A DNA stretch of 24,015 nt from Cochliopodium minus. Lineage: Eukaryota > Discosea > Himatismenida > Cochliopodiidae. Position 1 is the stretch's first letter; the number at the start of each line of letters is the position of its first letter. Shown here piece by piece: positions 1 to 23,066 of the stretch. The stretch is from assembly GCA_024220525.1 (NCBI GenBank), contig JAMYWO010000071.1:145515-169529 (forward strand). The letters are read 5' to 3'. Made by a program: the position numbers and the translations under genes. The notes below the pieces were generated by a model. The model searched no databases, was not told where the DNA came from, and was given only the letters and a program-made list of their open reading frames with translations.

Positions 1-66
1 ATTTTTTATTTTTTATTTTTTATTTTTTATTTTTTATTTTTTATTTTTTATTTTTTATTTTTTATT
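1..66. repeat. (ATTTTTT)n simple repeat inside an intron
   Basis: The first 66 bases are about nine tandem copies of a 7-bp unit, ATTTTTT. The tract continues into generally T-rich sequence up to the acceptor at 235-236, so it lies in the last visible intron of the ADP-glucokinase gene. Confidence 0.85.
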
Positions 67-236
67 TTTAAAATTATATTTTATTTTTTAATTTCATTTT
101 TTATTATTTGTTTTTATTTTTTTATTTTATTTTTTTCTCATTTATTATCATTATTTTTATTATTTAAATAAATTTTTATTTTTATTTTTTAAATATTAAA
201 CAATTTTTATTGAATATTTTTATTTTTTCTTTCTAG

Positions 237-554: not shown

Positions 555-1923
555 TTAAAACAAAAAGCATTTTTTCTTTTTTATTTTTTCTTTTTGTTTC
601 CTCATTAAATCTCTAAAAATTTGTTTCGTCAGGTCAGCAAAGACCTCAGAAATATTGATATTGTTTTTGGCAGAAGTTTCAAAGAAAGAGCAATTCCACC
701 GTTTAGAAAGTTCCTCACCTTCTTTCGTAGTTATTTCGACTTGATCCTTTAAATCAGATTTATTTCCTTTAAAAAAAAAAAAAATTAATTAAAAAAAATT
801 AATTAAAAATGAATGAAAAAATGAATGAAAATAATTTTAAAATTTTAAAATTTTAAAATTTTTTTTACCTACAAGCACGCAAGGAAAGGAAGGAGTTTCC
901 CTTACTCTCACAGCTTGTTCTCTTATGTCTTCAAGTTCTATGATAGTAGATTTGGCGGTCATGGAATACATAAAAATGAATCCATTTCCATTATTCATAT
1001 ACAATTCTCTCATTGCAGTAAACTTTTTAAAATTTAATTTAAATATTTAAAGAATAAATAAAAAATAATAAAAAATAATCAATTTAAAAATAAATGAAAA
1101 TAATTAAAATAAATAATTAAAATAAAATAATAAAATAAAATTTAATAAAAATAAAAAATAAAACGATTAAAAATAAAAATGTTTTACTTTTTCTGTTCCT
1201 GCAGTATCCAAAATTTCGAGGTGAGTAAGATACCCATTTATGATTTCGTCTTTACGAAAAGAATCTTCAATGGTTGGATCGTATCCAGGCACGAAAATTC
1301 CCTGCACATATCTTAAAAAAAAAAGAAATTAAAAAAATAAAATAATAAAAATAACATTAAAATAAAAATAAAAAATTTAATTTTATTGATAAATATTAAA
1401 ATAAAATATTAAAATAAAATAAATAATGAAATAATAAAATAATAAAATAAAAAAATAAAAAATTTTATTGATAAATAAATTAAAAAAAATAAAAAAAAAT
1501 ATTAAAATAAAAACAATAAAATTAAAAAAATTAAAAAATTAAAATAATTAAATAAAAAAATTAAATTTAAATTTAAATAAAAAAATTAATAATAAAATAT
1601 TAAAATAAAAAAATTTAATTTATTGATAAATAATGAAATAATAAAATATTAAAATAAAAAAAATGAACAATAATTTTTAGGAGAGAAAATTTCTTACTGT
1701 ATCGTTGTGGCGGATTTCCCCACTCCTCCCACTCCCAAAACTACGATTTTGATTCTATCATCATTCACTAAAAAATTTTTTTAATTTTTTTTTAATTTTT
1801 TATTTAATTTATTTCTTATTTTTTTTTGTTTTTTAAAATTTTTTTTTTACTAGAATATGATTTCCTTAGTAAATGATAGTGTATGAATTGTTCTTTGTAG
1901 TTTATTTCTTTGTTTTCTTCCAT
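555..1923 (-). CDS. Rap1-like small GTPase of the Ras family, five exons
   Basis: Exons: 1923-1851, 1767-1698, 1311-1188, 1022-869, 766-555; every junction is GT..AG and the phases close to 210 residues. It is a membrane-bound molecular switch that cycles between GTP and GDP. Visible motifs: P-loop GVGGVGKSA, effector loop [27 protein letters not shown] (G3), GNKSDL (G4) and ETSAK (G5). Thr instead of Gln after DTAG, and the [11 protein letters not shown] run, are Rap-type rather than Ras-type. The tail is lysine-rich and ends CFLF, a CaaX box; Phe as X favours geranylgeranylation. Unusual: an N-terminal extension of about 25 residues encoded by exon 1, and an ATG that is created across the first splice (TCT-A|TG) just before the G domain, so the true start could be either. 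It converges on the ADP-glucokinase gene, 172 bp apart. Confidence 0.92.
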
Positions 1924-3751: not shown

Positions 3752-4756
3752 ATGAATCAAAAAGATTATATATCTATATTGATAGAAAACAAAGTAACAT
3801 TCATGAATTAATAAGATTACCCAGATTTTTTTTGAAAAAGATATTAAAGTAAGGAAAAAAAAAAAACATTAAATCTCAATCAATCAAAAAAAAAAAAAAA
3901 GCATTTTTAAAAAAAAAAGTTAAAGAAGAGAAAAGCAAATCTATCAGATTATCAACTTTCTAATGATCATATAAAATATTTATGCGAGTTACTAGATAAT
4001 AATCAAACTACCGAAATTTTAAATCTGAGTGGATGCAAAATCAACGCAAGCAAATTGATGGAAATCTGCGAGATATTGAAGACTAATACAAAATTGAAAA
4101 CCTTGATAGTTTACCGTAACAAAATAAATTCAATAGGTGCTATTTATCTTTCTGATATGCTCAAAATAAATAATACCATAACAAAGATAGATCTAGGTTG
4201 GAACAAGATCTGTGTGGAGGGAGTTTCTTATCTCTGTCAGATTTTATCCTCACAAAATAAATCCATCTCTTCGCTGAATTTAACAAGCAATAAAATCGAT
4301 TCATTGGGATATAAGTATTTTTATAAATGCTTAAAAGTGAATATCACCCTCATAGATATTAACTTGGAGAATAATGAGAACGATTTGGAGAAAGATTGCA
4401 AAATTTTGGATAAATACGATTTTTTCTTGAAAGCAAATCAAGGATGGAGCCCTTCTATCCATTATTCATATCATTCTATAATCAAAGATGCCATCTTTTC
4501 CTTTCTACTATCTCTCAAATTTTATCACAAGAAAAATAATTATCTTAAAATCCCCAAATTCGTCTTATTTGAAATCATGTATCGCCTTGATTTGAAATCT
4601 TTCTATCAATTGATCTACAAGAATAAATCAGAACAGTCCATCAATAATATTATCAAAAGGAAATCTGATAATTTTTTTGGCTCCTTAGAAAATGATAATG
4701 AAGAGAAAGATGAACTTTTTGAGTATTTCCTTGTTCCAAAAAGAATCAAAATATAA
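3752..4756 (+). CDS. LRR protein (ribonuclease-inhibitor type) with shared C-terminal IPK module
   Basis: Proposed exons 3752-3793 and 3920-4756, giving about 292 residues. The large exon has no usable ATG near its start; a phase-0 intron (GTAACA at 3794, AG at 3918-3919, or nearby alternatives ending at 3925 or 3928) links it to an upstream exon starting MNQKDYISILIENK, which resembles the same junction in the LRR gene at 14491-16627 (GYVNLMI|ENK). The body has about five 28-residue leucine-rich repeats of the form LxxLxLxxNxIxxxGxxxLxxxLxxN, a protein-binding scaffold. The C-terminal part (4445-4591) carries the module W...SFLLSLKF...IPKFVLFEIMYRLD seen in three other proteins of this window, followed by a charged tail ending VPKRIKI. 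Probably cytosolic; no signal peptide. The function of the module is unknown. The F-box/LRR gene begins 56 bp downstream on the same strand. Confidence 0.72.
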
Positions 4757-4812: not shown

Positions 4813-7800
4813 ATGGAAACAAATATTCCTTCTCTTCCTTTGATTAAAATCTTTTCTTTCCTTGATATCAAAACTCTAAGTAAACTATTCCCATATCATT
4901 TACCGAAATAATATTAAATTATAAATTATTTGATGGTTAAAAAACAAACAATCGAATCAAAATTAAAACCAAAAAATAAAAAATTATACTTTCAACAAGG
5001 ATATGTTATTCTGGGGATCAATGAGCATCCCTAAAAATTTTTTTTTCAGAAAATCATTCAAATGTATTATAAAGAAATGGAGACTATAATAATCTGCAAT
5101 ACCATTAAATCCTTATTCTTTGGAATAATCTGATATAAAAAACATATCTCCAAAAATTTGATGAATCTTATATTCAATATTTTTTCAAAGAAATATAAAA
5201 ATATCATTTGAAAAAATAAAGAATATCCACTATTAATCCTTTCATTTTGTTTTTGCTTTAAAATAATTTGAAGGTAATTGCTCATTGATGTGCAAAAAAT
5301 GGAGTAGATTGGTAAATATGATGGACTCGGTCTGGTTTCCACACATAATATCGATATTGAAAGAGGGAATGAGCTTTGGGAGAATCAAAAAGCTTGTTTC
5401 AATATGTGATCTTAACAAACTCAAAAATTCAAGATTTTCTTGCTTAGTTTCTTTGTACAAAGAAGTAAATAATTAAAATAAAAAAAAATTAATAAAATTT
5501 ATTGATAAATTATTTAAAATAAATAAATAAGAACATATTTCAAAGAAATAATTAAAAATTAAAAAAATATTTGGTAGATTAAGAAATATTTAATTAAAAA
5601 AAATAAAAATGAACAAACTATAGACACTTTTAAGTTTAAAGGAAATGTTGAATTAAAAAAAGTTTAATAAATGAATTAAATAAATAAAAAATGAAATAAT
5701 TTTTTGATCAAGAAAAAGAAAAAGGAAATGTTGAATGTTTCCAATAAATCTGGAAAATTGAGACAAGTTTCAAAAATGGAAGAATTCATCCTCAAAATGA
5801 TAGACGGGAACAAAGTAGAGAAATTAAGTGTAGATTTGTTTCTACACACCATCAGTTTTCCAGAGTTGATCTCGAAATGCAAAAAAATCAAAAAACTGGA
5901 TCTTTCCCACCCCAATGATTACACAGAACTGGAAATCGAAAATATTTGTGTTCATTGTCCCGATTTAGAAAAAGTATCGATCAATTCAGCTTTGTCTTCT
6001 TTTTCCATCAATCTTTTGTTGAACAAATTGAAATTTTTGAAAGAAATAAAGTTTTCGGCGATGAATTGCGAGACGGTGGAATGTTTGGCGAACCACGAAA
6101 ACTTGAAGCAACTCAAAAAGATTACGTATTTCGAAAAAGAAAGGGTTTATTCGAGGGAAATCGAAGAGAGGAAAAAGAAAATATTTTTGGGGTTGATCGG
6201 GAGAAGTGGGGAAAGTTTGAAATCGTTGGGATTTTTCGATTGTTTTTTTATTTGTGATGAAATTTTTGAAAAGATGAGCAAACATTGTCCTAATCTCCAT
6301 TCTATCGTCATCAATGAAAATGAGAAAAAGCTCACGTTGGTGGAACCTCTCAACATTTTTCATTGGAAGAAAATCGCGGAGAATAGTGCGAAATTTCCGA
6401 AAAAGTTGGTTCTTTATTATCTTGAGAATAAGGTGGTTGGAAGTGAGGAAGACAAAGAAGAATTTTTTGAGAAATATTATTCTAGATTAAAAAATATTGT
6501 TTTGGTCGATTTCTATGACAAAAATAATTTTTTGGCCAGGTTGGATTGTTTGAACGTCCAAAGAGTACAAAAAGTGTGTTTCAAATTAAAAGGAAATTAT
6601 AGCGAAGCTAGATTTTCAAAACAGATTGAAATGATGGAGAATTTGAAATCGTTGGGGATTTCATCGAAATTCTTTGGAGGAGAAATTGACAATTTGGTTC
6701 TCAAATCAAAAACTCTTGAACATTTCGATTATTCCATGCACAGAACCCATTTGATTGAAATTGAATGTCCTAATCTGAAATTAAACTTTCTCAGTGATGT
6801 GATCAAGCTTTTGTGTCAACCCAAGTCATTGAAATACAGAATATATATCGAACAGTTAGATTTAAAAGAATTTTTGGAAAAAGTTCAAAAATATCCTCCG
6901 AAAAAAATCAAATGTGAGTTCTCTCCCCTTACACTTTCTTTTGTGGATCTTTTTCCTCACTTTTATGAGTTGGCCAAACACATTGTTTTAAAAAAAATTA
7001 ATGTGGATGTCGCTTTGATCCACGAATCTTTGGAACAATGCCCTTCTTTGGCTTCCATTTTGAAATCCATCTTAGTCACTTTCAAAGACGATAAAACTTT
7101 TCATCTTGTCAACGAAATACCCAACATCTTCAAAAACTTAAAGAAGATTGCAATAAGAAAAAGAACGATAGATGCAAGTATCGAATCTGAATTCAAATTA
7201 ATCAATGACTTTTTCTCTCTTCCCCTTTCCTCAATCGTTTTTAGCTTCAACTCTTTCCGAGACCTTCATAATCTCGAAATCCACAACGATTACGTCAAAA
7301 AACTCAAAATTGACAATAACAAAAACATCGAATCCATTTCTTTGAATTGCAAAAACCTCAGAACATTGTACATCATCAATAATAATTTTCAACACTTTGA
7401 AACTCAAAATCCTCGACTCTCCCTCGAAAATCTCATGGAAAACGTTTCAGATCCTTTTAAATTTCCCTTTCTTACTTCTCTTGAATTGGTGTGTCATGAC
7501 GAAGATCTTGATAACCTGGTTGATACAATATCTCCTTTATCCATTTCTTTTCCACTTTCTTCTTTTCCTTCGTTAAGTTTTCTTTCAATCACTTGTTTTA
7601 TGAATCTGTTTTCTTTTAAAATCGAAAATAATTCCCTTCTTAAAATTGAAATATATCAAATTCATTTTTTAGAAGAATGTGAAATTATTTCTAATTCACT
7701 CAAGGAAGTGAGAATGTAAGGAGCAGTTTTTTTCAAAATTTTATTTTTGCTTTATTTATTTTTTATTTCAAATAGATCCAGTGATAGATTGAAGATTCTC

Positions 7801-8364
7801 AAAATGAAGAAAGCAAAGCAGTTGAGATTTCTAGAAATTGACACATATCATCTAAATGAATTTGAATTAGAAGCACCTATTTTGAAACATTTTTGTTTAG
7901 AATTTATTTGTGATGAAAATCAACTTTTGAATTCTCTCAGAAATTGTCTTTCTTTGATTTCATTGGAGTTTAAGTTGCAAACATCTCTTCCAATTGATAC
8001 AACTTTCATTCTTTCTCAACTTCCGAATTATTGTCCAAATCTAAAGATATTGCAAGTTTGTAAATCGAATGTTGAGTTTAGAAAGTATGATTTGAGAAAT
8101 TTGAAGACATGTTTCAACAAATTGGGAAAAGAACTCACTATAGTCTCGAATTATGAAGAAATTAAACCTTTTTTGAATGATGAAGAAAAAGAAAAAGAAA
8201 GGAAAGAGGATATGAGGAGAAATTCACTTCACAAAATTATCAATTTCAAGAAATGGAAGTTTTTAAATACATTAAGAAGATTCAAAAACTTGTCTATGAG
8301 AAAAGGAATCGAAATGAATTTGTATGATTGTGAAGGGAGAAAAAATGATCTTGAAAATCTTTAA
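4813..8364 (+). CDS. F-box / leucine-rich-repeat protein (FBXL type), four exons
   Basis: Exons: 4813-4879, 5274-5464, 5713-7715, 7776-8364, about 949 residues. Exon 1 gives METNIPSLPLIKIFSFLDIK; joined in phase 1 to exon 2 it continues TLSNCSLMCKKWSRL..DSVW, a complete F-box (residues about 5-45), the segment that binds Skp1 in SCF ubiquitin ligases. The intron 5465-5712 (GTAAAT..CAAG, phase 0) leads into a long exon of irregular leucine-rich repeats (KKIKKLDL, PDLEKVSI, LKEIKF, LRTLYI) of the AMN1/FBXL kind, expected to recognise substrate. The last intron (7716-7775, GTAAGG..ATAG) is certain from phase and continuity (KEVR|ISSDRLKILKMK). The F-box part and the LRR part could be two genes, because exon 2 can also be read to a stop at 5474-5476 and an ATG exists at 5728; the fit of phases and the classic F-box+LRR order favour one gene. 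It converges on the cyclin F-like gene. Confidence 0.75.
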
Positions 8365-8479: not shown

Positions 8480-9755
8480 TTAAAATAAGTTCAAAGTTAA
8501 AAGAGAAAAGTCATAAAGAGAAACGAGAGAGTATTTTGTGTGAGAAAACTTTGTGAAAATGGAAGAGTCTCTTTGTTTCTCACGACAAGAAATAGCCCGC
8601 GAAACGAAAACTTTGTAAAGAAACAAAACTTTTTCGATACAATCAAAAAACTTTTGTTTCTCAAAAGAAAGTTGAAGAAAAGACAAAAAAGAAGAAGAGG
8701 AAGAGCTCCTCTTGATCAAACCAAACATGTACAAAGATAAATAAACGATGGAAGAGGAAATGTACTTGGAAGAATAAAGAGGGAAAATTTCGCGGGAATA
8801 AAAGAAACAAATTGAACAAAGATAGTTTATCATGTGAGGAACTTTCGAAAGAAAAACATTCTCCCAGCTTTTGATTTGTTGTTGATCGTTGTTCAAGCTT
8901 TCAATGCATTCCTTCTTCCATTCATCAAGTGATTCGAGATATTCACAACATAATATGAAGATGTTTGGGCTGTAGATTTCCCAGTTCAACACATTCAGGA
9001 ATGTTTTTTCAGCCTTTATTATTTCTTCCTCGGAGTAAGTATTGTCGCAGATCTCTTTTATCTCTCCAATTCCTTTGTGGTGGGTATCTTCAAATTTGCT
9101 TGAGATCCATACACTGCAGATTCCAAATAATTGAAGACAATCTTTTGATATTCCTCTTGATAAACTTAAAAATCTATTATTATTTTCAAAAAAGTAAAGT
9201 AAATAAAAAATTAATAAAAAGTTAAAAAATTTTGTGAAAGCAAAATATAAAGTATAAGAAAGTTTAAAGAATAATATTTTTGTTATTTGAATAATGTTGT
9301 GAAATTAATTTTATTTTTTGAAGGATAATTAAAAAGCAAAATTTTATATAAAAAGAGGAATTGTGAAAAGCAAAAAAAAATTTTAAATTAAAAAAAGAAA
9401 TTTTACCTATCAAAACAATCCCAAGAGATGAAAAGTGCTCTTTCGCTCATTTGAAATTCATTTTGAACTTCAACGAACCATTCGAAAGTTATACGTCTCA
9501 TCTTGTCTTTCAATTGAGGATGATTTTTTTCCAATTCAAAATTCTTCAAGTCATTTTTTGAATCTATCATTCTTTCCAAGATTCCTCTTTCAAATTCTCC
9601 GAGAAAAGTTTTTACAGAAGTTATTTCTGAGAGATATCTTTTCCAGCTTCTGCATACTAATTTGCAGCTTTTTCTTGTTTTTGAGTCTGCATATCTCAGT
9701 ATCTTTTTTATTATTCTCTTTGGGAGAAATTCGAACGAATCATTTTTTATTTGCG
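8480..9755 (-). CDS. F-box plus cyclin-box protein, cyclin F-like (first exon unresolved)
   Basis: Exons 9755-9407 and 9173-8480, joined by GTAAAA..ATAG inside an Arg codon, give about 347 residues without the N-terminus. The first part reads FEFLPKRIIKKILRY then CKLVCRSWKRYL, an F-box. About 50 residues later comes a cyclin N-box: MRRITFEWFVEVQNEF, then RALFISWDCFDRFLSL, SSKFED, NTYSEEEIIKAEKTFLNVLNW. The conserved cyclin Lys (SSKFED) and Glu (KAEKTF) are present. A weaker C-terminal cyclin fold follows (MINYLCSICFFYSREI, SSIVYLSLYMFG), then a serine-rich linker and a basic tail. F-box plus cyclin is the architecture of animal cyclin F (FBXO1), an SCF substrate receptor. The exon enters in phase 1 after TATAG, so a start exon lies above 9755; a candidate ATG at 9981-9983 ends in the wrong phase and is not accepted. 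Shorter than human cyclin F (786 residues). Confidence 0.8.
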
Positions 9756-10798
9756 CTATAATTTAAATTTAAAAAAAAATTAATATAAAGGAGAAAATGA
9801 ATTGAATGAATAATACTATTATGGATCTAATATTACTTTGATCATTTAATTTTTAATATAAATTTTAAGAGAAATTTAAAAATAAAGAAATAATAAAATT
9901 TTTTTTTGTTGTTTGATAAATTTAGGAAATAAAGAAGAGGTAAGATGTGAATTACCCTCAAATGATTTTCTCTTTCTCTATTCATTTGATTTTCGAAAAA
10001 ATATATGAGAAAAAAGAAGAAAAGATTAATAAAAGGAATTGTTTAATTTTTATTTTACAATCTCTATTTGATTGTATTGATTCTTTCTTTTATTATTAGA
10101 TGGTTTATCCTTTTTATTTTCTTCGATCGGTATCTCTTTTATATTTATTTTCATTTCTTTGATATTATTTTTTTTTGCTTTTTTTTTATTTATTATTATT
10201 TTTCATTATTGAGATGCTCATCGAGCAATTTTTAGTAGGACTTTATAAAAACATTAAAGATTTCTCCTCTTTTAAATGATTCGAAAATGAAGACATATAA
10301 TCAAAGCTCTATTCAAATGAAATTTTTAAGATTCAAATGCTTTGCTAATTAGATTTTTTGCTTTTTCAGTTTTTTACTTTTTGCTTTTGAAAAAGGGATT
10401 TAAGAAAAATAAAAAAGAAATTTAAAATACTAAAAGCATAAAAAAAAATAAAGCTTTTTTTAATTTTACTGTTTTTTCTGATTTTGGAGAATCTTTTTTC
10501 AAATCAGTTTCAACCATTTCTTGATAATTTTGAATCTTCCTTTTAAAACAATTATTAATTCACAGACAAAATTTACAGAAACTATAATTTGAAAACGAAC
10601 AATAAACAATTTTTAAACTGTTTTAAGTATTATTTAATCTTAAAATGTTTTTGAGAAAGGAAAAGTAAACTGACTCAAAAAAATTAAAACAATTTAAGCA
10701 GAATATGTTAACAATTTTCTTTCAAAATATAATAAAATTTGGTGAACCAAATTAATATAATCAAAATTTAATTATTATAATAAAAAAAAGATTTTTTT
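9756..10798. other. About 1 kb AT-rich intergenic region
   Basis: No open exon with recognisable similarity on either strand. It must contain the start exon and promoter of the F-box/cyclin gene (minus strand). The short reading MNRERENHLR at 9981-9952 followed by GTAATT looks like a start exon but does not fit the phase of the next exon. The rest is homopolymer-rich sequence up to the stop codon of the ankyrin gene at 10799. Confidence 0.4.
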
Positions 10799-12530
10799 TT
10801 AAAAATAAAACTGTTTAAAATGGTAGATTGAGAGAATAGTGATTATTTCAAGGATGATGGGTTTGGGAATTCTAAATGAAGAACGATTTTTATTGAAAAG
10901 AAGAATGATTAACAAAAGATGCTCCACCTGTTTCTTGAAGGAATTAGGAAAATAAATGTGAGTAGTTTTGTCCCATAAAGTGAGTTTTTGCTGCAATTTA
11001 TTAGTTAATTTAGTTACTAGAACACCATCTATAAAAGGTAAAGAACAGTTAATACAACAATGAGTTTCTTTATCAATGATGTGCAAGCAGAAATTTTCTA
11101 GTTGAATGTCCTTTTTTTTGAAAAATTTAATGAAAAAAAAAATTGAAAAATAAAAAAAAATTATTTACTTCGTTGTTTCTATACCACCCATAATTATAAC
11201 ATTGGCATTTTCCTGATAATGATAAGTAGTTATCATCACATTCATCACATTTCACATTTTTTACAAAGTTATCGGAAACATTGTATTCCACGAAACCATA
11301 AGCAAACAAACTCATAAGAATTTCTTTATTTCCAAATAAAGAAGGATGAACTCTTAAAATATCGATTGTAAATCGAGAGTTGTCATAATAAAAAAACTTT
11401 TTAGTTTTTTCGAGAAAAAGAACAAATTCTTTTTTGTATTTATCAATCATCCCTATCCTTTTTAAGTAGATATGGATTGGATATTGACAAATAGCATTGT
11501 CTATGTTCATTTTCGCTCCTTTTTCAAGAAGGTATGAAATATCCTCATAGTTAATGGCTCCTCTTTGTAAATATAAATGGAAAAAAGTGTTTCCCAATAC
11601 ATCAATGGCATTAATGTCCACTTTGTTTTCAATTAAATAATACATGGAGTCTCGGAGCTTATTTTGGTTATAAAATAAAAGATGTAAAGGGGTTTTGTTT
11701 GAATCATCCCTGATCTTCAAATCTGCTTTTTTTTCAATCAAATATTTCACTGATTCTTTTCCGAGTGTGTATTTAGCTTTATAAAAAAGTAAGATGAAGG
11801 GAGTATTTTTATATTTGTCTTTTAGGTTCATATCAGCTTTGTTTGAAACAAAAATTTCCAAAACTTTTTCATTTATTATTTTATTTTGATAAAGGAAAAG
11901 GTAGTGGAAAGGTGTTCTATTTTCATAATCATTTTTGTTCAGATCACTTTTCATTTCTACCAAAAATCTTAATATATCTTCAAAATCTTTTCTTTCATTT
12001 TTGTTCTCCAAAAAATAATGAAGAGGAGTTTTTTTGTAAATATCCTCTTCGTTTATATTTGCTTTATTTTCAATCAATAATTTCAGAATATCAACATTTA
12101 CATTATCATTCCAACAAAAATAATGAAATGGAGTTCTTTTGTGTATATCTTTTATATTCACAGATATCCCGTTGTGAATAGATTCCAATAACATTTCTTT
12201 CAATCTATTGCTTTCAAGGTTGTAGAGCCAACTCATATGAATTATCTCAAATTCTTCATTTCTTTCTATTTGTGGGATTATTTCTTCACTTAAAAAGGAT
12301 TTGAAATTTTTATATTCTTTTGAGTTTGGGCTATCGCATTCAGGGCATTCATATCTATATTCTGTGAAAGTATTGCAGATCTTACAGACATACACCAATT
12401 TATCTATCTCTTCCAAATCCAAATCCAGATATTCTGATATCAATTCGAATATTGCATTACATTTCCTGCAATTTTTCTTTGCATAATGATTTTCTTGACC
12501 ACAAATCTCACAAATAATATATTTTTCCAT
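10799..12530 (-). CDS. Zinc-ribbon / ankyrin-repeat protein with shared C-terminal IPK module, two exons
   Basis: Exons 12530-11169 and 11110-10799, joined in phase 0 (GTAAAT..AAAG), 557 residues. The N-terminus has two zinc-ribbon-like CxxC pairs: Cys7/10 with 21/24, and Cys49/52 with 62/65. From about residue 105 there are seven or so ankyrin repeats with the usual signatures (RTPFHYF, KTPLHYF, NKTPLHLLF, GNTFFHLYL, KADINxxD-like turns), a protein-binding scaffold. After the repeats comes another Cys-rich patch (KCDECDDNYLSLSGKCQCYN, later HCCINC) that spans the intron. The protein ends with the module found in the two LRR proteins: WDKTTH...VEHLLLIILLF...RIPKPIILEIITIL (10829-10975). No signal peptide or membrane segment. 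It is divergent from the next gene with only 54 bp between start codons. A role as a ubiquitin-ligase substrate adaptor is inferred from the architecture only. Confidence 0.82.
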
Positions 12531-12584
12531 TTAGATTTTTTTATCTTTAAAAATAAAAAAATCAGAATATTGAAGAATATTGGA

Positions 12585-13282
12585 ATGCACAAAGAATTTG
12601 TAATTGCAAATGAGAAAATAGATAGATATTTGTCAAATTTATTTAATAAAACAAATAAACCGATTGAAATGTTAGATTTATATACACATACCTTCAACAT
12701 TATGGGAACATCAGATCTTCAAAATGTACATGTAGAGTATTACATGCTTATTTTATCAAAAATTAGAGGGATGTGCATAAATTATTTCAAAATGAATAAA
12801 AAAAAAGATTATAAAAAAGATGCAAATACCTTTATAAAAACTTTTAATTACATGCAAAGATTTTTCATACCAAAGAATAATTGTAAGAATAACTTAATCT
12901 TTTTAAAACCATTTAATTAATTCATTGAAATTTCAAATCAAAATATTAATAAAAAAATAAAAAATCAGATATAAAATTGGAGCAAGTAAAAATCTAACAA
13001 ATTTGAATTAGTAAAACCAAAATGATGTTTATTGTTACCAATTAGTATTCGAATAAATGCTTTGACAAATTGGATAATCATGTTATCTTATGGACCAAAG
13101 ATAATCACATGGTGAGTTCAAATAAATTCAAAGACTCTGTCTTCTCATTTGTGATTTGCATGAAAATTTTAAAACATAGAAACTTAATTCTTCCTCGAGT
13201 TTTGATCATACATATCATCAAACAAATGCCTCAAGAATCTAATTTGGAGACATTTTTGCAAGATATAGATTTAAAAAATTAA
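12585..13282 (+). CDS. Small helical protein, possibly cullin N-terminus-like, with shared C-terminal IPK module
   Basis: Proposed exons 12585-12882, 12969-12985 and 13046-13282, 183 residues. Donors GTAAGA and GTAAAA and acceptors TCAG and TTAG close the phases (1 then 0), including a 17-nt exon encoding part of NYIKLEQ. The first 100 residues are helical; IDRYLSNLFNKTNKPIEMLD followed by LYTHTFNIM, and later TFIKTFNYMQRFF, recall the first cullin repeat (compare YMELYTHVYN and the W..Y...L..I..YL region of CUL1), but the match is short and I hold it loosely. The last exon carries the shared module: WTKDNHM...SVFSFVICMKIL...LILPRVLIIHIIKQM (13091-13234). Alternatively the first and last parts are two genes, the last a degraded fragment. 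It shares a 54-bp promoter gap with the ankyrin gene. Confidence 0.5.
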
Positions 13283-13460
13283 AACAGATTTTTCGTTCAA
13301 TTTTTTTATTGTAATTCAAAAAGAAGTCCTTTTTCAAAAATGATGATTTATATTCATGAATTTACTGTTAATTAATCTTCTTTGGCTTTAATTTTTTTCA
13401 TTTTGAGAAAATAAAGTAAGAAGATTAAGGGACAATTAAATTTTAAAAAAAAAAAAAAAA

Positions 13461-14240
13461 ATGAAGAGCATAACTCTGATCTCATTTTTCATAGTTTTAT
13501 TTACATTTATTTTGAAATGCCAAAAAATTCAAAGAACCACCTACGCTTCCAAAAATTGTAAATATTCTTTTTGAATGAAACCTAAAAAGTAAAAAGAAAT
13601 TGAAAGGTACAGGAATAGTTAAACAAAATGATATAATGGTAATAGGAGGTAAAGAACAAACTTTTTTTTTTTTATAAAATGATTATTTGTTTATCAGAAT
13701 GTGTCACACCAACTGAAAGTTTAAAAAACATTTTATCAGCTTTTGTTGTTCAGAGAACACCATTGTTATTTGTTGTTTTTTCATGCACTGACGATAGGTG
13801 TAGTGATTGCCATGATGCAGGGATTAATGTGGGTATTTGCAATGATTTATCAGATGGCAGTGTAACTCTAAACATTTCCAGCAGTTTTCATATGTAAAAA
13901 ATATTTTATTCACAAATTATTTTTTAAAAAAAATTGATTTCATTAAAGTGATCCACTTCCTTATGAATTTATTAAATTCACCACATTTTCTAATAATGAC
14001 TGCACTGGAAATATTTTTGAGGTCACTTATGGAAATGTAAAATGCTTTCGTGATTCCACTGTAACATTATTTTCTTAAATCAATTTTATTTTTCATTTTT
14101 TTTTTTTGGGAAAGTGGAGTCGTAATTCAACTGGAATTTACCAAACTGGTAAATGTTCATTAAATTGTGAATGTAACAAAATAGAACCTGTTTTAAAATA
14201 TAAATTGGGATGTAGTAATGGAGTATCAGTTTCATTTTAA
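13461..14240 (+). CDS. Secreted cysteine-rich protein, five exons
   Basis: Exons 13461-13557, 13607-13648, 13698-13893, 13949-14060, 14115-14240; all GT..AG, phases 1, 1, 2, 0, total 190 residues. The start MKSITLISFFIVLFTFILKC is a clear signal peptide. The mature chain has about a dozen cysteines, e.g. NCTG, GECV, SCTDDRCSDCHD, GICN, NDCTG, VKCF, GKCSLNCECN, LGCSNG, and possible N-glycosylation sites NIS and NST, so a disulphide-bonded extracellular protein is expected. Two segments look like copies of each other: NCTGIVKQNDIMVIGECV and NDCTGNIFEVTYGNVKCF, with the same Cys-Thr-Gly start and Gly-x(1-2)-Cys end. If the fourth intron is not removed the chain would stop soon after FRDSTVTLFS. 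I recognise no named family; small secreted Cys-rich families of this style are common in amoebae. Confidence 0.72.
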
Positions 14241-14389
14241 AAAATTTATAATTTTATGTAATAAAGATTGATAAATTAACTCTTTTTTTATGAGACTATT
14301 TCACTTTTCAAATTTTTAAAAAAATTTATAATTTTATGTAATAAAGATTGATACAATAACTCTTTTATGAGACTATTTCACTTTTCAAC
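14241..14389. repeat. Tandem direct duplication, period about 80 bp, in a 3' flank
   Basis: Copy 1 (14241-14312) and copy 2 (14321-14389) both run AAAATTTATAATTTTATGTA, then AATAAAGATTGATA, a variable A/T stretch, then ACTC...TTTTATGAGACTATTTCACTTTTCAA. They differ by a few substitutions and a 3-4-base T-run difference. Each copy contains an AATAAA-type polyadenylation hexamer, so the duplication follows the secreted-protein gene and may give it two 3' ends. Confidence 0.85.
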
Positions 14390-14490
14390 TTTCATAACCA
14401 ATGATACCATGCTGTATGGATTTTGGATTGGTGATCAGCAAAAGACAATCTCCTCTAGAAATATTTTTTAATTTTTTTTTTTAAATTATC

Positions 14491-16627
14491 TCAAAGTAAA
14501 TCAAAATTTATTTTTTCAAAATAAGATTTTCTATCTACAAGTTTTATAATTTCTAAAACTACGTATTTGGGTATCTTGATGTTAATTTTGGATTGCAAAA
14601 ACTTGAGGGAAAGAAGAAAAGATGTCACTGAAGAGTAAAAAGAAAGAGAAAAGGAAAAATAGAAATCAGTATTCCACTCTAAATTAGTGGAAAGAAGAAA
14701 AGTGATTTTAGATTGGACCGTTTCATGAAAATAATTGTTTTGTAAAGACAAATTGGTGAGGGAATAGTTTGATAGAAGAGAATTAACAATGTGGACATTG
14801 TATTTGTCTATATTTATATTGTTATGAGAGAGATTGAGAGTTTTGAGAGTATTATTGTGGGACAAAAAATTAGAAATGGTATTGAAACCTTTTGTTCTGA
14901 TAAAGGTATAACTTAAATTTAATTCTGTAAGTGTGTGATTGTTAATTAAGATTTCCAATACTATTTTGGAACAGTCTTCACCAATGTTGTTGAAAGATAA
15001 ATCCAAAAAAGTCAAGCTTTTGTTGGACAATAAATAATCAGAGAGGAGAATCATACAATCTTTTTTTACCAAATTATTGTTGAGATTCAATTCTCTCAAG
15101 AAAGAATTTCTCTTCAAGTTTAAAAATAATATTTCCAAATGAGATTTCTTCAAATTATTTTGACTAAGATGAAGGGAAGTCAAAGTACTGTTATTGATCA
15201 AAGATTCACTAAAAGTAGAAATGCTTTTCTCACTAAGATAATTTCCTGATAAATACAAAGAGGAGAGAGTAGTATTGAGTTTAAGAGAAGAAGACAAATT
15301 TTCAATAGCTCTTTCTTGTAATCTATTCTCGCTAAGATTTAAAGAAGTTATGTATGAATTTTTGAGAAGAGAACTTAAAATTGATTCCAAGTCATCATTT
15401 TCTGTGATTCTAGACAAATTTAAAGAAGTGATGCCTCTATTCACCTCTAACATTTCATTCATAAATTTCAAACCTACAAATTAAAATATAAATAATTTAA
15501 TTTATTTTTTTTTAATAATAATTACCTTGTTTGGAAATCTCAACATTATTTAATTTCAATATTTGGATGGTGTGATTAACTTTGAGAGAATTACACAGAA
15601 ATTTAAATGAGTTGTCATCCAATTTATTATAAGACAAATCTAAAAAAGTTAAAGATTCATTCACTTTTATGAACTCTGAAAGAAATTTAGTGTGTTCAAA
15701 CTTTAAATTATTTTCGGAGAGAAAAAGCTTTTTGATAATTTTGTTAGTAGATAATGAATCGAAAATATATTCCATCCCCTTCTCATTAATTCCGTTGTCA
15801 TTCAAATTTATCTCCGTCAATGTTGTGTTTTTTTTCAGGCATTCGCTCAAATACAAAAATCCCTCATTATTTATCTTTGTGAACATCAAATTCAAAGTTG
15901 TTATGAGTTTGTTTGACTTTAGACTTTCCGAGATCACTTTCATTCCATTCGAATTTATTTTGTTATAACTCAAATCAATGTATGTCAATGTTTTGTTTAC
16001 TTTTATCATTTCTGCTATCATTTTGAACCCTTCAAAGTTTAGTTTGTTTGATTTCATTGTGAGTTTTTTTATTCTGTTTTTCTTTTTCAAGTGTTCCATC
16101 ATCATTTTTGTTCCTTTCGCCTTCATGTTTGTGTTGTTCAATATCAGCTCTTTGATCTTCTTGCTTTCTTTCTCCATGTATTTTATTACTAGTGCCACTT
16201 TTTCATCTTTCAAAAGTAAATCAGATAAATTCAATGTTTTGTTTTCCTTTTGTTTGATTTTAATTTTGAATTTTTGAGAAAATTAATGGAAAAAATATCT
16301 TTGGAGTAATATTGATTTTACAATCATTAAATTCACATATCCTTTTTCTACACCGAAATTCCCTTTCAAATCATCTTCTTCGATTCCATCTTCCTCATCA
16401 TCGCTTATATATGAGTATCTTTCAATTATAGAACTGTTTATTTCTTCATCTGTTAACATCTCAGTTATTTTTTGATAGTGCAATGGGTCTTTCTTTTCTA
16501 ATTTTAAAATTATTTTTTTTTTTTCAGACTTTTTTTTATTTATTTTAAATATTCCTTTGCTCCTAAAAGATTGTTTAAAATTATTTGAAATAAAGAGAAA
16601 CAAATGCAAAAAGTTTCACCTTCTCAT
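14491..16627 (-). CDS. Large LRR protein (about 17 repeats) with shared C-terminal IPK module, four exons
   Basis: Exons 16627-16620, 16562-16322, 16246-15526, 15473-14491; introns GTGAAA..TTAG, GTAAAA..AAAG, GTAATT..GTAG; phases 2, 0, 1; 650 residues. The start exon is only 8 nt (ATGAGAAG); it is the least certain part. The N-terminal 80 residues are basic (NKKKSEKKK) then acidic (ISDDEEDGIEEDDL). Next come about 17 near-regular 28-residue repeats of the type TLTxLxLSxNxIxxxGxxxIxxxLxxN (ribonuclease-inhibitor type), continuous across the third intron, which splits ISKQG|LKF inside repeat 8; this proves that the two long reading frames are one gene. The end carries WNTDFYF...VTSFLLSLKF...IKIPKYVVLEIIKLVD (14533-14676), the module shared with three other genes. 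Such a long curved scaffold should bind another protein. Probably cytosolic. Divergent from the GPCR gene with 171 bp between starts. Confidence 0.85.
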
Positions 16628-19008: not shown

Positions 19009-21934
19009 TTAAAGTTTGGAATCAAATTTTTTATGAACAGTTTCAAGACTGCTTGTTTTGTTGGTTGTAACAGCAATATCCTTCTTTTGTTTTTGAAGAC
19101 TAGGTTCAAGAGGATTGATTTCGATGGCGGGGTTTCTTTTGTTTTTAGGAAACTCTCTCCACTTCTCAGGAAAAGCCAACTTGTAGACAGTGACCACTGC
19201 TGCACCGCCAAGACCTATGTTGTGTTGAAGAGCGTATTTGACATTTGGTACTTGGCGTTTTCCTGTCATTCTTCTTAATTGCCAACACAATTCTGCACAT
19301 TGTGCCAATCCTCTAATAAAAATTTTAAAAAAAAATATTTTTTTTTAATTTTTTTAATTCAATTTTTAATTTTTATTTACGAATTTAAAAAATAAATTTT
19401 TTATTTTTATTTTTATTTTTTTGTTTATTTTTTTAATGAAATCTTTATTAATTCAATTTTAATTTATGAAATTTTTTTTTTAATTTATGAATTTAGCATT
19501 TTAATTATTTTGATTATTATTTATTTTAATTGATTATTTATTTTTAATGAAATCTTCACTTTATTTTTATTTTATTATTTATTTTTCCAATTTATATTTT
19601 TTATTTTTATTTTTTGATTATTTATTTAATTTTGCAGTATTATTTTTATAGATTTTTATTTTTTATTTTTCACTTACGTAGCACCAAGAGGATGACCCTT
19701 AGAAATGAGGCCACCAGAAGGGTTGACAACCCATTTACCACCATAAGTGACTTGGCCATCCTCAACCAACTGAGGAGCCTTCCCCTCAGGAGCAAGACCC
19801 AACGCCTCATACGTCACCAACTCATTGCAAGAGAAGCAATCGTGCAACTCTATCACTTGAACGTCGTTTGGTGTGATTCCTGCTTGTTCGTATGCTTCGT
19901 TTGCTGCCTTTTTATTTTTTAAAAAAAATTTAAAAATTTTTTCTAATACAAAATAAAATAATCACAAAAAAATTTTTAAAAAGAAAAAAAATTATCACAA
20001 ACAAAAATGAAACAAAAAAATACTTAAAAAAAGAAAAAAATATTCAAAAAAAAAATAAATTCAAATTATTATAAAAATTCAAAATAATCACAAAAAAAAT
20101 ATGAAGATGGAAAAAAATAAAATTAAACATAAATCAAAATTATTTTTCGATTTTTTAAAAAACAATGAAAAATTGAGTTTTTAAAAAATTTTCGGTTTAC
20201 TTTTTTACTCATGTCAAATCCGACCATTTGAATCATGGATTTACTTTCAATGCAAGAAGGGAGATCAGTAGCAAGTGACATTCCTGCATTTATTTTTTAA
20301 AAGAAAAAAAAATGAAAAAAAAAAAATAAAAAATAAAAAATAAAAATGAAAAAAAATAAAATAAAAAAAATAAAATAAAAAAAATAAAAAAAAGAAAAAA
20401 TAAAAATGAAAATTTTGAATACCAACTATTTCTACAGCTAGATGTTCCAAACCATGTTTTCTAACAAATTCTTCGTCACACAAAATTGCTGCTGCAGCTC
20501 CATCTAAAAATAAAAAGTAAAAATATAAAAAATAAAAATCTTGAAATAAATAATGAATAAAAATAAAAATCTTAAAAAAATAATAAATACTATCTTAAAA
20601 AAAGAAAAAGGATTAGAAAATGAAAATAAATAATGAATAAGAAAATAATAAATGTAAAATGCAAAAATGAATAATATTAATAAATAAAATATAAAATAAA
20701 AATAAATATAAAAAAAAATAAAATTAAATATAAAATTAAAAATAAAATTAAAAATAATCTTTAATAAAAAAAAAATGAAAAAAAATAAAATAAGAAAAAA
20801 TGACCAGAAGTAGGACAACATTGAAGTTTGGTCAAAGGATCGAAGACCTTGGGACTCTGCTTGATCTGGTCCAAAGAATAAACGGTCTGAAACTGAGAAT
20901 AAGGGTTGTTGGCACTGTGTTTGTGGTTCTTGTAGGCGATCTTGGCGAAGGTTTCGGAGGAGGTGTTGTAGAGCTTCATGTGCTCTCTTCCTGCGTTTCC
21001 GAACATTTGTGGCGCGAAGGGCGCTTGTTCGAGCCCCACTTCGTTGATCATCACTTTCATGTGTTGGTCTAGTGGGTTTGTTCTGTCAGTGTACTTGTTT
21101 TGGAGTGATCCTATATTGTGATAAAAAATTTTCAATATTAAAATAATTTTTAAAAAAATAATTGATAAAAAAAAAAATAATTGTAAAAATTTTAAAAATA
21201 ATTTAAAACAAAAAATAATTGTAAATAAAAATTTTGTCAATTAAAAAATAAATTTTGAAAAATAAAAAAACTTTTAAAAAATTTAAATTAACATATTCAA
21301 AAATAAAAAATTAACATTTTTAAATTAATAAAAATAATTTAAAAATTATGAAAAATAATTTATGAAGATACCTCTTTCCATTTTTTCGAAGCCGAGGGCC
21401 AAAACGCAACCAGCGAGACCTCCTTGGATGAATTGACGAGCCATGTAGAGCGCTGTGCTTCCTGTGCTACAGTTGTTGTTGACGTTGTAGATTGGAACTC
21501 CCGTCATTCCGATTTCGTACACTGCTCTTTGTCCACATGTTGAATCACCTATAAAAAAATATATAATAATAATTATTTACGATGATTTGATGTTAATAGG
21601 GCATTATCTTTTGAATATATGGATTCATACATTCAGGAAATTTGAATTATAAAATTCTTCAATAAAAAATTTTTTTTACCATAAACATATCCTACACATA
21701 CTTGTTCAATTTGTTTATAATTTACCCCTGAATCTTGCAAAGCGTCTTCTATTGCCACTTTGGCCATTTGTGGGTAATCTATCGAAGTGTATCAAGTTTT
21801 ATTGAGAAGATATTCTGTTAGATATTTTTTTAATTTTTTAAATATTTAAATTTACCCCAGTCTCTTGATCCTGGTTTTTCAAATTTGGTCATTCCAACAC
21901 CAATAACGAATACTCTCTTCATTTCTTTCTTCAT
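19009..21934 (-). CDS. SCPx-type 3-ketoacyl-CoA thiolase, peroxisomal, eight exons
   Basis: Exons 21934-21856, 21778-21680, 21548-21372, 21110-20805, 20503-20423, 20283-20201, 19907-19678, 19312-19009; phases consistent; 452 residues. It cleaves 3-ketoacyl-CoA with CoA in peroxisomal beta-oxidation, typically of branched or sterol side chains. Evidence: [16 protein letters not shown], nucleophilic Cys86 in [77 protein letters not shown], and [15 protein letters not shown]. These are specific for the thiolase domain of sterol carrier protein x. The SCP2 lipid-transfer domain that follows in animals is absent; instead a short basic tail ends in SKL, a classic PTS1 peroxisome signal. Intron 4 has an unusual donor, GTCATT. 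Exons 3 and 4 are much richer in G/C at third positions than the rest of the gene. Converges on the GPCR gene. Confidence 0.95.
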
Positions 21935-22262
21935 TTCAAAATATACTTTGAGTGGGCAATGCTATTTCTTTCCTTTTTTTTTATTTTTTTATTTATGGTT
22001 TGGGATTTGATATGATTTGGCTGTTTTTGAATTGATCTCATCTTTATTTAAGAGAGAATTATTTCATTTGATGTATTTGAGAGAACAAATTTTTTTTGAA
22101 GAGAATATCTCAATAATCTCATTTTAATGATTGAATATTTGATTGATTATCGAATGGATAGATTCATTAGAATACCAAAGATGGGAATATAAGAATGGGA
22201 GTTATAAATAAAGTTTTATGATTTAAATTTTGAACATAAAATTAAAAAAAAGTGGATATTTT
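21935..22262. other. Short intergenic region, upstream of the thiolase and downstream of ATP23
   Basis: About 330 bp of AT-rich sequence between the thiolase start codon (21932-21934, minus) and the ATP23 stop codon (22263-22265, minus). It must contain the thiolase promoter and the ATP23 3' end. I see no exon, RNA gene or repeat in it. Confidence 0.5.
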
Positions 22263-23066
22263 TTAGTATGGACAGTGATCGAAGGGAGCATAATCATCCC
22301 TACAAAAATCCCATACTTTATTGATGTAATAAGGAGCCTTATCCTTGCATTGCTCGTTGTTGTTCATAGATAATTCGATACGTCTCTTTATACATCTTGA
22401 TTTATGATTAAGGAAATTGTAACTGACTTCACCTCGAAGGAATTCCATCTTATAATCACATTCACCACTCATATTTACAGCCCTTATCTAAATTTATAAT
22501 TTTAAAATTAAATTATAAGAAAAGGATATTCATTATATACCTCTGAGCATGCTATCTGTTCACAATTTAATTGATCCAATTGTGCTGTGCAAAAATCATG
22601 TGCATGCACCAATTCATGTAACAATGTTTGGGTCAATAATCTTTTATCTAATACAGGTACATCTTCACAAACAACTATCTAGTTATGAAATATAATATAT
22701 ATTGATCTTTTGAATTTTACTTGTTTATATTCTATTCAAACCCCTTGATCAGAATCCCAAAATCCACCTTTTTTATTTTGAATATAAGGTTCAATGATTT
22801 TAGTTTTTAAAATGGATATTTTGGTGTTATTTGGAGGAATACCGATATTTGGATTCACATTTATACATGATTTGCATTTGAAAAAGTTTTTGGATACTTC
22901 GCATCCTGATTTGTTGAGTGTATTGATCATATATTTGATATATTGATCTATAAATCGTTTGAATTGAGGGTAATTATTGATAAAAAAGAAAAAAATTGGG
23001 TATAGATGGTTTACTTTCATCCAATATCTCTTGTAACAGATTTTGGCATTTTGTATTCTTGTTCAT
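22263..23066 (-). CDS. ATP23: Mitochondrial inner membrane protease ATP23 (peptidase M76), four exons
   Basis: Exons 23066-23015, 22947-22742, 22678-22541, 22487-22263; phases 1, 0, 0; 206 residues. ATP23 is a zinc metalloprotease of the mitochondrial intermembrane space that processes Atp6 in yeast and assists ATP synthase assembly; it also degrades lipid-transfer proteins. Visible family features: NQYIKYMINTLNKSGCEV, FKCKSC (Cys42/45), GGFWDSDQG|IVVCED, the active-site HELVHAHDFC (HExxH at 107-111), QIACSEIRAVNMSGEC, CIKRR, and the final VWDFCRDDYAPFDHCPY. About 25-30 extra residues sit between the CxxC and the GGF. The second intron uses a rare donor, GTTTGA, but the phase and the family match support it. 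The many cysteines suit an oxidising intermembrane space. Start codons of ATP23 and the glycosyltransferase gene are only 56 bp apart, back to back. Confidence 0.95.

What the first reader, a model, noticed from the sequence alone, without database searches (positions are those of the whole stretch)
10829..14676. A shared ~50-residue C-terminal module fused to LRR, ankyrin and helical scaffolds
Four gene products end, or nearly end, with the same segment: 4445-4591 (+), 10829-10975 (-), 13091-13234 (+), 14533-14676 (-); the third and the 3752-4756 gene lie on the plus strand. From the Trp the first 25 positions align without a gap: W, an aromatic or His at +5 in most, a hydrophobic at +16, then [FL]-hh-x-[LIM]-[KL]-h at +19 to +25. 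After 8-11 variable residues comes [IL]P[KR]xhhxxI. The N-terminal scaffolds are unrelated (LRR, LRR, zinc ribbon/ankyrin, short helical). A tail constant while the recognition part varies is what one expects of an adaptor, as in F-box, PRANC or SOCS-box proteins, whose LPxE/LPLP helices this resembles. I do not recognise it as a named domain.
Basis: partly seen in the sequence, partly recalled or inferred. Interest (0 to 1): 0.78.

Follow-up and report, generated by a model that had tools for sequence, protein, structure and literature searches.

The report
C-terminal F-box-like tail on repeat proteins
Four neighbouring genes of an unidentified single-celled eukaryote end in the same short helical tail, attached to different protein scaffolds, and the tail's last part looks like a shortened F-box, the plug that connects target-binding proteins to the cell's protein-disposal machinery.

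Summary
Confirmed: four segments at the stated coordinates share a roughly 50-residue module; each is recovered by a profile of the other three (E 6.5e-7, 1.3e-4, 1.2e-6, 2.2e-9). It sits on LRR, LRR, ankyrin and a short ORF, so it is not an LRR cap.

From [IL]P on, the tails match F-boxes in register. On 23 residues 2, 1, 2, 1 of 615 control sites reach A-D (on 12 residues 39, 0, 2, 2), and B, C, D score like the window's own F-boxes. CUL2-box similarity is near chance and the BC box is absent.

No Pfam F-box, PRANC or SOCS model reports the natural modules, so this is F-box-like, not a proven member. Best reading: SCF substrate receptors with a C-terminal two-helix F-box, as in poxvirus and chlorovirus ankyrin proteins, here in an intron-bearing eukaryote and also on LRRs. 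Skp1 binding is inferred.

A possible fifth copy ends an ankyrin protein on an unrelated contig, supported mainly by its position.

The parts
4445..4591 (+). module A, C-terminal to an LRR domain
   Evidence: translation; LRR_6 E 1.3e-9; leave-one-out E 6.5e-7
4550..4618 (+). F-box-like part of A (IPKFVLFEIMYRLDLKSFYQLIY)
3938..4444 (+). LRR scaffold of gene A (gene start uncertain)
   Evidence: Pfam LRR_6; first intron only predicted, 4 combinations
10829..10975 (-). module B, on a second exon (about 10802-11110) of the ankyrin gene
   Evidence: leave-one-out E 1.3e-4
10802..10870 (-). F-box-like part of B (IPKPIILEIITILSIYHFKQFYF), ends the protein
11169..12530 (-). CxxC/ankyrin exon of gene B
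   Evidence: Ank_2 E 1.8e-28; donor at 11168 predicted
13091..13234 (+). module C
   Evidence: leave-one-out E 1.2e-6
13190..13258 (+). F-box-like part of C (LPRVLIIHIIKQMPQESNLETFL)
12486..12920 (+). short ORF possibly holding the upstream exon of gene C
   Evidence: link through an intron only predicted; no Pfam match above cut-off
14533..14676 (-). module D, C-terminal to an LRR domain
   Evidence: leave-one-out E 2.2e-9; modelled helices 276-295, 302-309, 314-325 of the 326-aa piece
14506..14574 (-). F-box-like part of D (IPKYVVLEIIKLVDRKSYFEKIN)
14677..16234 (-). LRR scaffold of gene D in two exons (intron about 15474-15525, one of 5 combinations)
   Evidence: LRR_6 E 1.2e-8 and 3.5e-17; intron predicted

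Best explanation
The module is a C-terminal, shortened (about two-helix) F-box preceded by one extra conserved helix (W, then H/Y at +5, F at +12, V/I at +16, hydrophobic from +19). The LRR or ankyrin part binds a target; the C-terminal F-box-like part would dock on Skp1 and so bring the target to a Skp1-Cul1-Rbx1 (SCF) ubiquitin ligase. Shown: the shared module, its variable scaffolds, its position, and the in-register F-box similarity of its second half. Inferred: the fold (modelled at low confidence), Skp1 binding, ubiquitination, and the role of the first helix (packing, or extending the Skp1 contact).
For: Tail anchored at [IL]P, 12 aa, against two F-boxes taken from PDB (FBXW7, SKP2): B, C, D score 39, 34, 33 and are reached by 0, 2, 2 of 615 control phi-P sites; A scores 16 (39 of 615) and E 24 (9 of 615). 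The window's own F-box segments score 34 (partial F-box at 4813) and 33 (F-box/cyclin gene) on the same test. Over 23 aa A, B, C, D are reached by 2, 1, 2, 1 of 615, E by 51. Against four F-boxes (two PDB, two window): 0, 0, 1, 0 of 595 controls for A-D, 29 for E. Against residue shuffles with the first two residues fixed, pooled over the four F-boxes: p 0.00065, 0.00125, 0.0039, 0.00125 for A-D and 0.00115 for E. Profile-profile comparison aligns the tail with F-box helix 1 at P 0.01 (4 rows) and 0.0032 (5 rows); with SOCS boxes P 0.43 and 0.68. phi-P-x2-phi-x3-phi, the F-box consensus in PMC6232478 (passages), at the [IL]P site in 4 of 4 window modules. [IL]P[KR]xhhxxI, a motif read off the modules, occurs in 5 of 77 stop-to-stop pieces of 60 aa or more: the four modules, as they must, and the F-box of the F-box/cyclin gene. 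The protein ends 21-28 residues after the Pro position in 4 of 5 copies. Precedent: truncated two-helix C-terminal F-boxes of poxviral ankyrin proteins bind Skp1 (PMC4353913, passages); chlorovirus ankyrin proteins have a C-terminal Skp1-binding motif (PMC7019647, passages).
Against: Pfam reports no F-box, F-box-like, PRANC or SOCS match for the four modules (E up to 10), for the separate tails of A, B, D and E (E up to 10; C's tail was sent only within its module), or for the longer pieces (E up to 1). A 33-aa partial F-box of the same window is reported at E 0.032. hhalign probability is low (4 and 10 percent). Single F-box comparisons are weaker than pooled ones (p up to 0.088, C against SKP2), and the last ten tail residues alone give p 0.0016, 0.041, 0.20, 0.047, 0.72 for A-E, so the second-helix likeness is not shown for C and E. 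Among 47 controls that share the phi-P-x2-phi-x3-phi spacing, none reaches A-D against four F-boxes, but 1 reaches A and 1 reaches C against the two PDB F-boxes, and E is reached by 11 and 15. The same regular expression also fits at another place in B and E, so the string is not specific. Foldseek finds nothing at E<=0.001 in PDB or the viral library, from a weak model (pLDDT 68, pTM 0.42); in the model of D the module has pLDDT 37-64. The reference set has two PDB F-boxes plus two of the window. Controls come from six-frame pieces of 150 aa or more of phage and bacterial contigs, not all real genes and of other composition. Copy E lacks the Pro. The first half of the module has no F-box counterpart.
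Confidence: 0.58

Rival explanations
1. The module is a SOCS/VHL-type box: the first helix is a BC box for Elongin C and the [IL]P helix a CUL2 or CUL5 box. Ankyrin receptors ending in such a box are known (FEM1B); LRR ones too, by recall.
For: Layout: from F/I at +12 of the first helix to the Pro is 22-24 residues, and phi-P-x2-phi-x3-phi is also the published CUL2-box consensus (PMC13061254, PMC13342108, passages). FEM1B chains in PDB end SLKCLAARAV...QIPRTLEEFVGFH. A loose BC-box pattern fits A, B and D.
Against: Strict BC box [TSP]Lxxx[CSA]xxxphi in 0 of 5 copies. The best BC-box-like window is reached by 414, 134, 2417, 781, 2814 of 3000 shuffles for A-E, and B's lies at another offset. 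Tails against FEM1B/FEM1C are reached by 132, 253, 100, 327, 504 of 615 controls for A-E, and against SOCS2/SOCS4 by 379, 35, 320, 271, 579. hhalign aligns nothing of note. Only two CUL2-boxes and two SOCS boxes were used.
Confidence: 0.14
2. The module is a protein-interaction or oligomerisation domain unrelated to ubiquitin ligases; the F-box likeness is convergence of an amphipathic helix that begins with phi-P.
For: No Pfam or PHROGs family matches above cut-off. The first, well-conserved half (W, H/Y, F, V) has no counterpart in any tested box. Foldseek finds nothing. Some amphipathic control sites reach the modules' score against the two PDB F-boxes.
Against: Of 47 control sites with the same hydrophobic spacing none reaches A-D against four F-boxes; the similarity over 23 residues is reached by only 1-2 of 615 controls for A-D and equals that of F-boxes of the same window on 12 residues for B, C, D.
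Confidence: 0.22
3. The module is only the C-terminal cap of the repeat domains.
For: It follows directly after the LRRs in A and D.
Against: The same module follows ankyrin repeats plus a CxxC segment in B (if the predicted splice is right) and a non-repeat ORF in C; the model of D has a stretch of pLDDT under 50 at 261-274 between LRR and module helices.
Confidence: 0.03

Closest known systems
Poxviral ANK/F-box (PRANC, PF09372) proteins
   Same: C-terminal truncated two-helix F-box after ankyrin repeats; Skp1 binding shown for several (PMC4353913, PMC9414399, passages)
   Different: Pfam PRANC does not report these modules; here also on LRRs, in an intron-bearing eukaryotic genome; the W-H-F helix was not compared with PRANC sequences
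Chlorovirus Skp1-binding ankyrin proteins (PBCV-1 A682L, A607R)
   Same: C-terminal Skp1-interaction motif behind ankyrin repeats (PMC7019647, passages)
   Different: their sequences were not compared here; the primary paper is not held
Cellular F-box/LRR proteins (FBXL, SKP2)
   Same: LRR receptor plus F-box; in-register similarity to the SKP2 F-box
   Different: cellular F-boxes are typically N-terminal (PMC4148323, passages) and three-helix (PMC9414399, passages); here C-terminal and short
Nasonia and other insect CLANK / Wolbachia ANK-PRANC proteins
   Same: ankyrin repeats with a C-terminal PRANC or diverged PRANC (PMC6161386, passages)
   Different: attributed there to transfer from Wolbachia; no LRR version in the passages seen
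FEM1B/FEM1C (BC-box plus CUL2-box)
   Same: ankyrin receptor with an adaptor box at the very C-terminus
   Different: strict BC box absent here and CUL2-box similarity near chance

Membership tests
F-box (PF00646/PF12937) | reaches the curated Pfam score | tested here: not met
   not reported for the four modules or the tails of A, B, D, E at E up to 10
F-box | helix 1 with phi-P-x2-phi-x3-phi and residue similarity to known F-boxes | tested here: met
   spacing in 4 of 4 window modules; controls reaching A-D: 39, 0, 2, 2 of 615 on 12 aa, 2, 1, 2, 1 of 615 on 23 aa; A is weak on 12 aa
F-box | third helix with the VC..W region (consensus recalled; compare FBXW7 and SKP2) | tested here: not met
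   protein ends 21-28 residues after the Pro position in B, C, D, E; by eye no such motif in A
F-box | binds Skp1 | not testable with these tools
   no complex prediction or experiment available
PRANC (PF09372) | reaches the Pfam model | tested here: not met
   not reported by Pfam scans (at E up to 10; at E up to 1)
PRANC | truncated F-box at the C-terminus of ankyrin proteins | tested here: inconclusive
   position and length fit in B (through a predicted splice) and E; A and D carry it on LRRs; that it is an F-box is itself only likely
SOCS/VHL box | BC box [TSP]Lxxx[CSA]xxxphi | tested here: not met
   0 of 5; consensus from PMC6232478, passages
SOCS/VHL box | CUL2-box phi-P-x2-phi-x3-phi | tested here: inconclusive
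   spacing in 4 of 4 window modules, but the same string describes F-box helix 1, and residue similarity to FEM1B/C is near chance
SOCS/VHL box | Elongin C and Cul2/Cul5 binding | not testable with these tools
   no complex prediction or experiment available

The most novel reading that the evidence does not exclude
A named domain is missing: a eukaryotic 'W-H-F helix plus truncated F-box' module, spread over LRR, ankyrin and other scaffolds in protists (and on a contig that is a protist or a large DNA virus), and the cellular counterpart from which poxviral PRANC and chlorovirus ankyrin adaptors were drawn. [quoted passage not shown]
Probability: 0.22. Interest if true: 0.72.

Novelty: new variant of a known kind. 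Interest (0 to 1): 0.47.

Why it matters
In the passages seen, C-terminal ankyrin/F-box receptors are described from poxviruses, chloroviruses, Rickettsiales and, by transfer, some insects, and one review calls them extremely rare in eukaryotes (PMC9414399; PMC6161386). Intron-bearing protist genes with that plan, on LRR as well as ankyrin scaffolds, would offer a cellular source for the viral design and would show an SCF receptor class that current domain models miss. If the module is general, a single profile would annotate many repeat proteins of unknown function.

Tried and rejected
Viral contigs: eight scans. Two used peptide patterns: protein D, 12 stretches; module D, 122 stretches; none was confirmed as a relative. 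Six used DNA patterns and gave 0, 5, 0, 0, 9 and 4 stretches. Of those 18 loci, 12 showed the amino-acid pattern when translated (3 of 5, 6 of 9, 3 of 4), in short pieces or in one kind of 887-aa protein (two loci). By eye none is a module at the end of a repeat protein; no Pfam scan was run on them. L001-L017 were also scanned with the five-copy profile (best viral hit E 0.028); L018-L021 were not. Viral collections therefore give no support.

Genome contigs: one scan, one stretch, L006. By my own arithmetic (equal base frequencies, no tool) about two chance matches were expected, so the hit matters only for where it lies: in frame, 56 residues from the stop of a 355-aa ankyrin ORF. Given the nine patterned residues, the rest does not resemble the window modules beyond chance as a whole (z 0.93; 527 of 3000 shuffles; single copies A-D 1005, 1451, 38, 1855 of 3000). 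Its tail does not score against a profile of the four tails (768 of 5000 shuffles reach it). Anchored at the Pro position it gives p 0.019, and 0.054 on 13 residues. A profile of A-D did not recover it, and that of A-C only partly at E 0.48. Its raw F-box score is reached by 29 of 595 controls.

The genome of that contig gave itself and one partial hit at E 0.185 (with another profile 0.0017; not followed). Of 387 genomes of its phylum 3 matched at E 0.01: that contig, which is a row of the model, and two near E 0.009.

Rejected: SOCS/VHL box, LRR cap, Pfam-known domain. APAF1_C, THAP9_C, NCH4, DUF2931 and DUF4462 are below their cut-offs (the first three only for typed consensus peptides). 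PHROGs gave nothing. PDB sequence searches with the profile, a typed consensus and copy E gave only E 0.2 or worse. Foldseek gave nothing. The organism stayed unidentified.


Full report
Observation. The window is AT-rich (GC 15-32 percent per kb) and carries genes that appear interrupted by short AT-rich introns, so I take it as eukaryotic. No genome is held for it. The four segments translate as described. Aligned from the Trp they share W, H/Y at +5, F or I at +12, V/I at +16, a hydrophobic stretch from +19 and, 34-36 residues after the Trp, the Pro of [IL]P[KR]xhhxxI. For all six pairs 0 of 2000 shuffles reach the observed score. Leave-one-out profiles recover each left-out copy at E 6.5e-7, 1.3e-4, 1.2e-6 and 2.2e-9 among 923 six-frame peptides of the window and L006; the best other hit in those runs was 2.9e-3. 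No further copy was found in the window.

Scaffolds. A and D follow LRRs (LRR_6 E 1.3e-9 and 1.2e-8; D's upstream exon 3.5e-17). B follows ankyrin repeats (Ank_2 E 1.8e-28). C follows an ORF without a Pfam match above cut-off. B's module is in another frame, reached by a predicted 58-nt phase-0 intron, the shortest of 20 GT-AG combinations that keep frame. C's link is less certain (3 combinations, 314-446 nt).

Structure. The model of D (326 aa, 4-row alignment, mean pLDDT 75) shows an LRR coil to about residue 263, a segment of pLDDT under 50 at 261-274, then helices 276-295, 302-309 and 314-325 at pLDDT 37-64 per block. The module of D with a 5-row alignment (window copies plus L006) models as three helices (17-37, 43-53, 55-66) at pLDDT 68, pTM 0.42. 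Foldseek finds no match at E<=0.001 in PDB or the viral library. The helices are plausible; the packing is not established.

Which adaptor box? Published strings: F-box phi-P-x2-phi-x3-phi and BC box [TSP]-L-x3-[CSA]-x3-phi (PMC6232478, passages); CUL2-box phi-P-x2-phi-x3-phi and CUL5-box (PMC13342108, PMC13061254, passages). The F-box and CUL2-box strings are identical, and the string also fits elsewhere in B and E, so it cannot decide. Residue similarity can. Anchored at the Pro and scored on 12 aa with BLOSUM62 against FBXW7 and SKP2, tails A-E score 16, 39, 34, 33, 24 and are reached by 39, 0, 2, 2, 9 of 615 control phi-P sites. The window's two F-box segments score 34 and 33 (2 of 615 each). 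On 23 aa the controls reaching are 2, 1, 2, 1, 51. Against FEM1B/FEM1C CUL2-boxes the controls reaching are 132, 253, 100, 327, 504; against SOCS2/SOCS4 379, 35, 320, 271, 579. The controls are phi-P sites in six-frame pieces of 150 aa or more of the fetched phage and bacterial loci (595, 615 after two more loci came in; L006, L007 and L024 left out). In one search, against four F-boxes, A-D are reached by 0, 0, 1, 0 and E by 29 of 595; among 47 controls with the same hydrophobic spacing by 0, 0, 0, 0 and 11; against the two PDB F-boxes 1, 0, 1, 0 and 15 of 47. Shuffle tests pooled over four F-boxes give p 0.00065, 0.00125, 0.0039, 0.00125, 0.00115; single F-boxes give p up to 0.088, and the last ten residues alone 0.0016, 0.041, 0.20, 0.047, 0.72. 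So helix 1 carries the likeness in C and E, and the second helix is supported mainly in A, B and D. A strict BC box is in 0 of 5. The best BC-like window is reached by 414, 134, 2417, 781, 2814 of 3000 shuffles. hhalign agrees in direction: F-box P 0.01 and 0.0032 but probability 4 and 10 percent; SOCS P 0.43 and 0.68.

Against. Pfam F-box, F-box-like, PRANC and SOCS models are not reported for the modules or for the tails of A, B, D and E at E up to 10, although a partial F-box from the same window is reported at E 0.032. The reference sets are small. The third F-box helix is absent: B, C, D and E end 21-28 residues after the Pro position.

A possible relative outside the window. A pattern W.P..H..FP..F[KR]..V..L, resting on recall together with the window copies, matched one stretch in the genome contigs (257 billion bases by the tool's description): the last 56 residues of a 355-aa ankyrin ORF (Ank_2 E 2e-25) on PCBO01000065.1, labelled an Opitutia MAG. 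The contig also encodes a Ras/Rab-type GTPase (Ras E 4.8e-38), and none of seven further pieces sent, of 14 listed, has a Pfam match at 0.01. I take it for a mis-binned protist or large DNA virus contig; this is not proven. The match has the same position and a W-to-P-position distance of 34, but Asn in place of Pro. Outside the patterned residues its similarity to the window copies is not significant by two tests and weak by a third (p 0.019). Its F-box likeness is p 0.00115 by shuffles but only 29 of 595 by raw score. I call it possible to probable.

Mechanism. The most likely working is that of an SCF substrate receptor: repeats bind a target, and the C-terminal short F-box docks on Skp1. 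Shortening to two helices is compatible with Skp1 binding, and one cowpox protein binds with an F-box effectively reduced to helix 1 (PMC4353913, passages). Chlorovirus ankyrin proteins use a C-terminal Skp1-binding motif (PMC7019647, passages). Seven Orientia ankyrin proteins with a C-terminal F-box-like domain associate with Skp1 and/or Cul1 (PMC4148323, passages). For the window proteins Skp1 binding is inference. The conserved first helix has no counterpart in the boxes compared; it may extend or buttress the Skp1 contact.

Novelty. Ankyrin or LRR receptors with an F-box are a known kind. A C-terminal truncated F-box in intron-bearing genes of a protist, on both LRR and ankyrin scaffolds and with a conserved extra helix, is a variant that I did not find described. 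The searches were (open-licence PMC only, seen as listings). [quoted passage not shown] My recollection that W[ST]P..H..FP..F[KR] tails are common in protist proteins is a lead only and comes from no call.

Noticed in passing
window 8483-9762 (-): Gene with an F-box followed by a cyclin domain (cyclin F-like architecture) in two open pieces; Pfam F-box E 4.3e-5, Cyclin_N 1.2e-7 and 4e-14.
   Followed up: partly
window 4813-8361 (+): Possible F-box/LRR-like gene: partial F-box halves (E 0.032 and 0.046, below cut-off) precede long ORFs that look LRR-like by eye but have no Pfam match above cut-off.
   Followed up: partly
window 19012-21961 (-): Thiolase-like gene in several pieces (Thiolase_N E 0.0098, below cut-off) ending in SKL, a peroxisomal targeting signal by recall; suggests the organism has peroxisomes.
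   Followed up: no
window 22266-22678 (-): Sequence resembling the mitochondrial protease ATP23 (HELVHAHDFC) by recall; no family search ran on it (the item failed).
   Followed up: no
window 558-1781 (-): Ras-family GTPase-like gene with introns, by eye from the translation; no family search ran on it.
   Followed up: no
window 13461-14240 (+): Short multi-piece ORF set with a signal-peptide-like start and several Cys, between modules C and D; possible small secreted protein, by eye.
   Followed up: no
window 1-70: Short tandem ATTTTTT repeats at the very start of the window.
   Followed up: no
L024 1-18172 (contig of L006): MAG contig labelled Opitutia with a Ras/Rab-like GTPase, an ankyrin protein ending in a module-like tail, and large ORFs of which seven sent had no Pfam match at 0.01; may be a mis-binned protist or large DNA virus contig.
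   Followed up: partly
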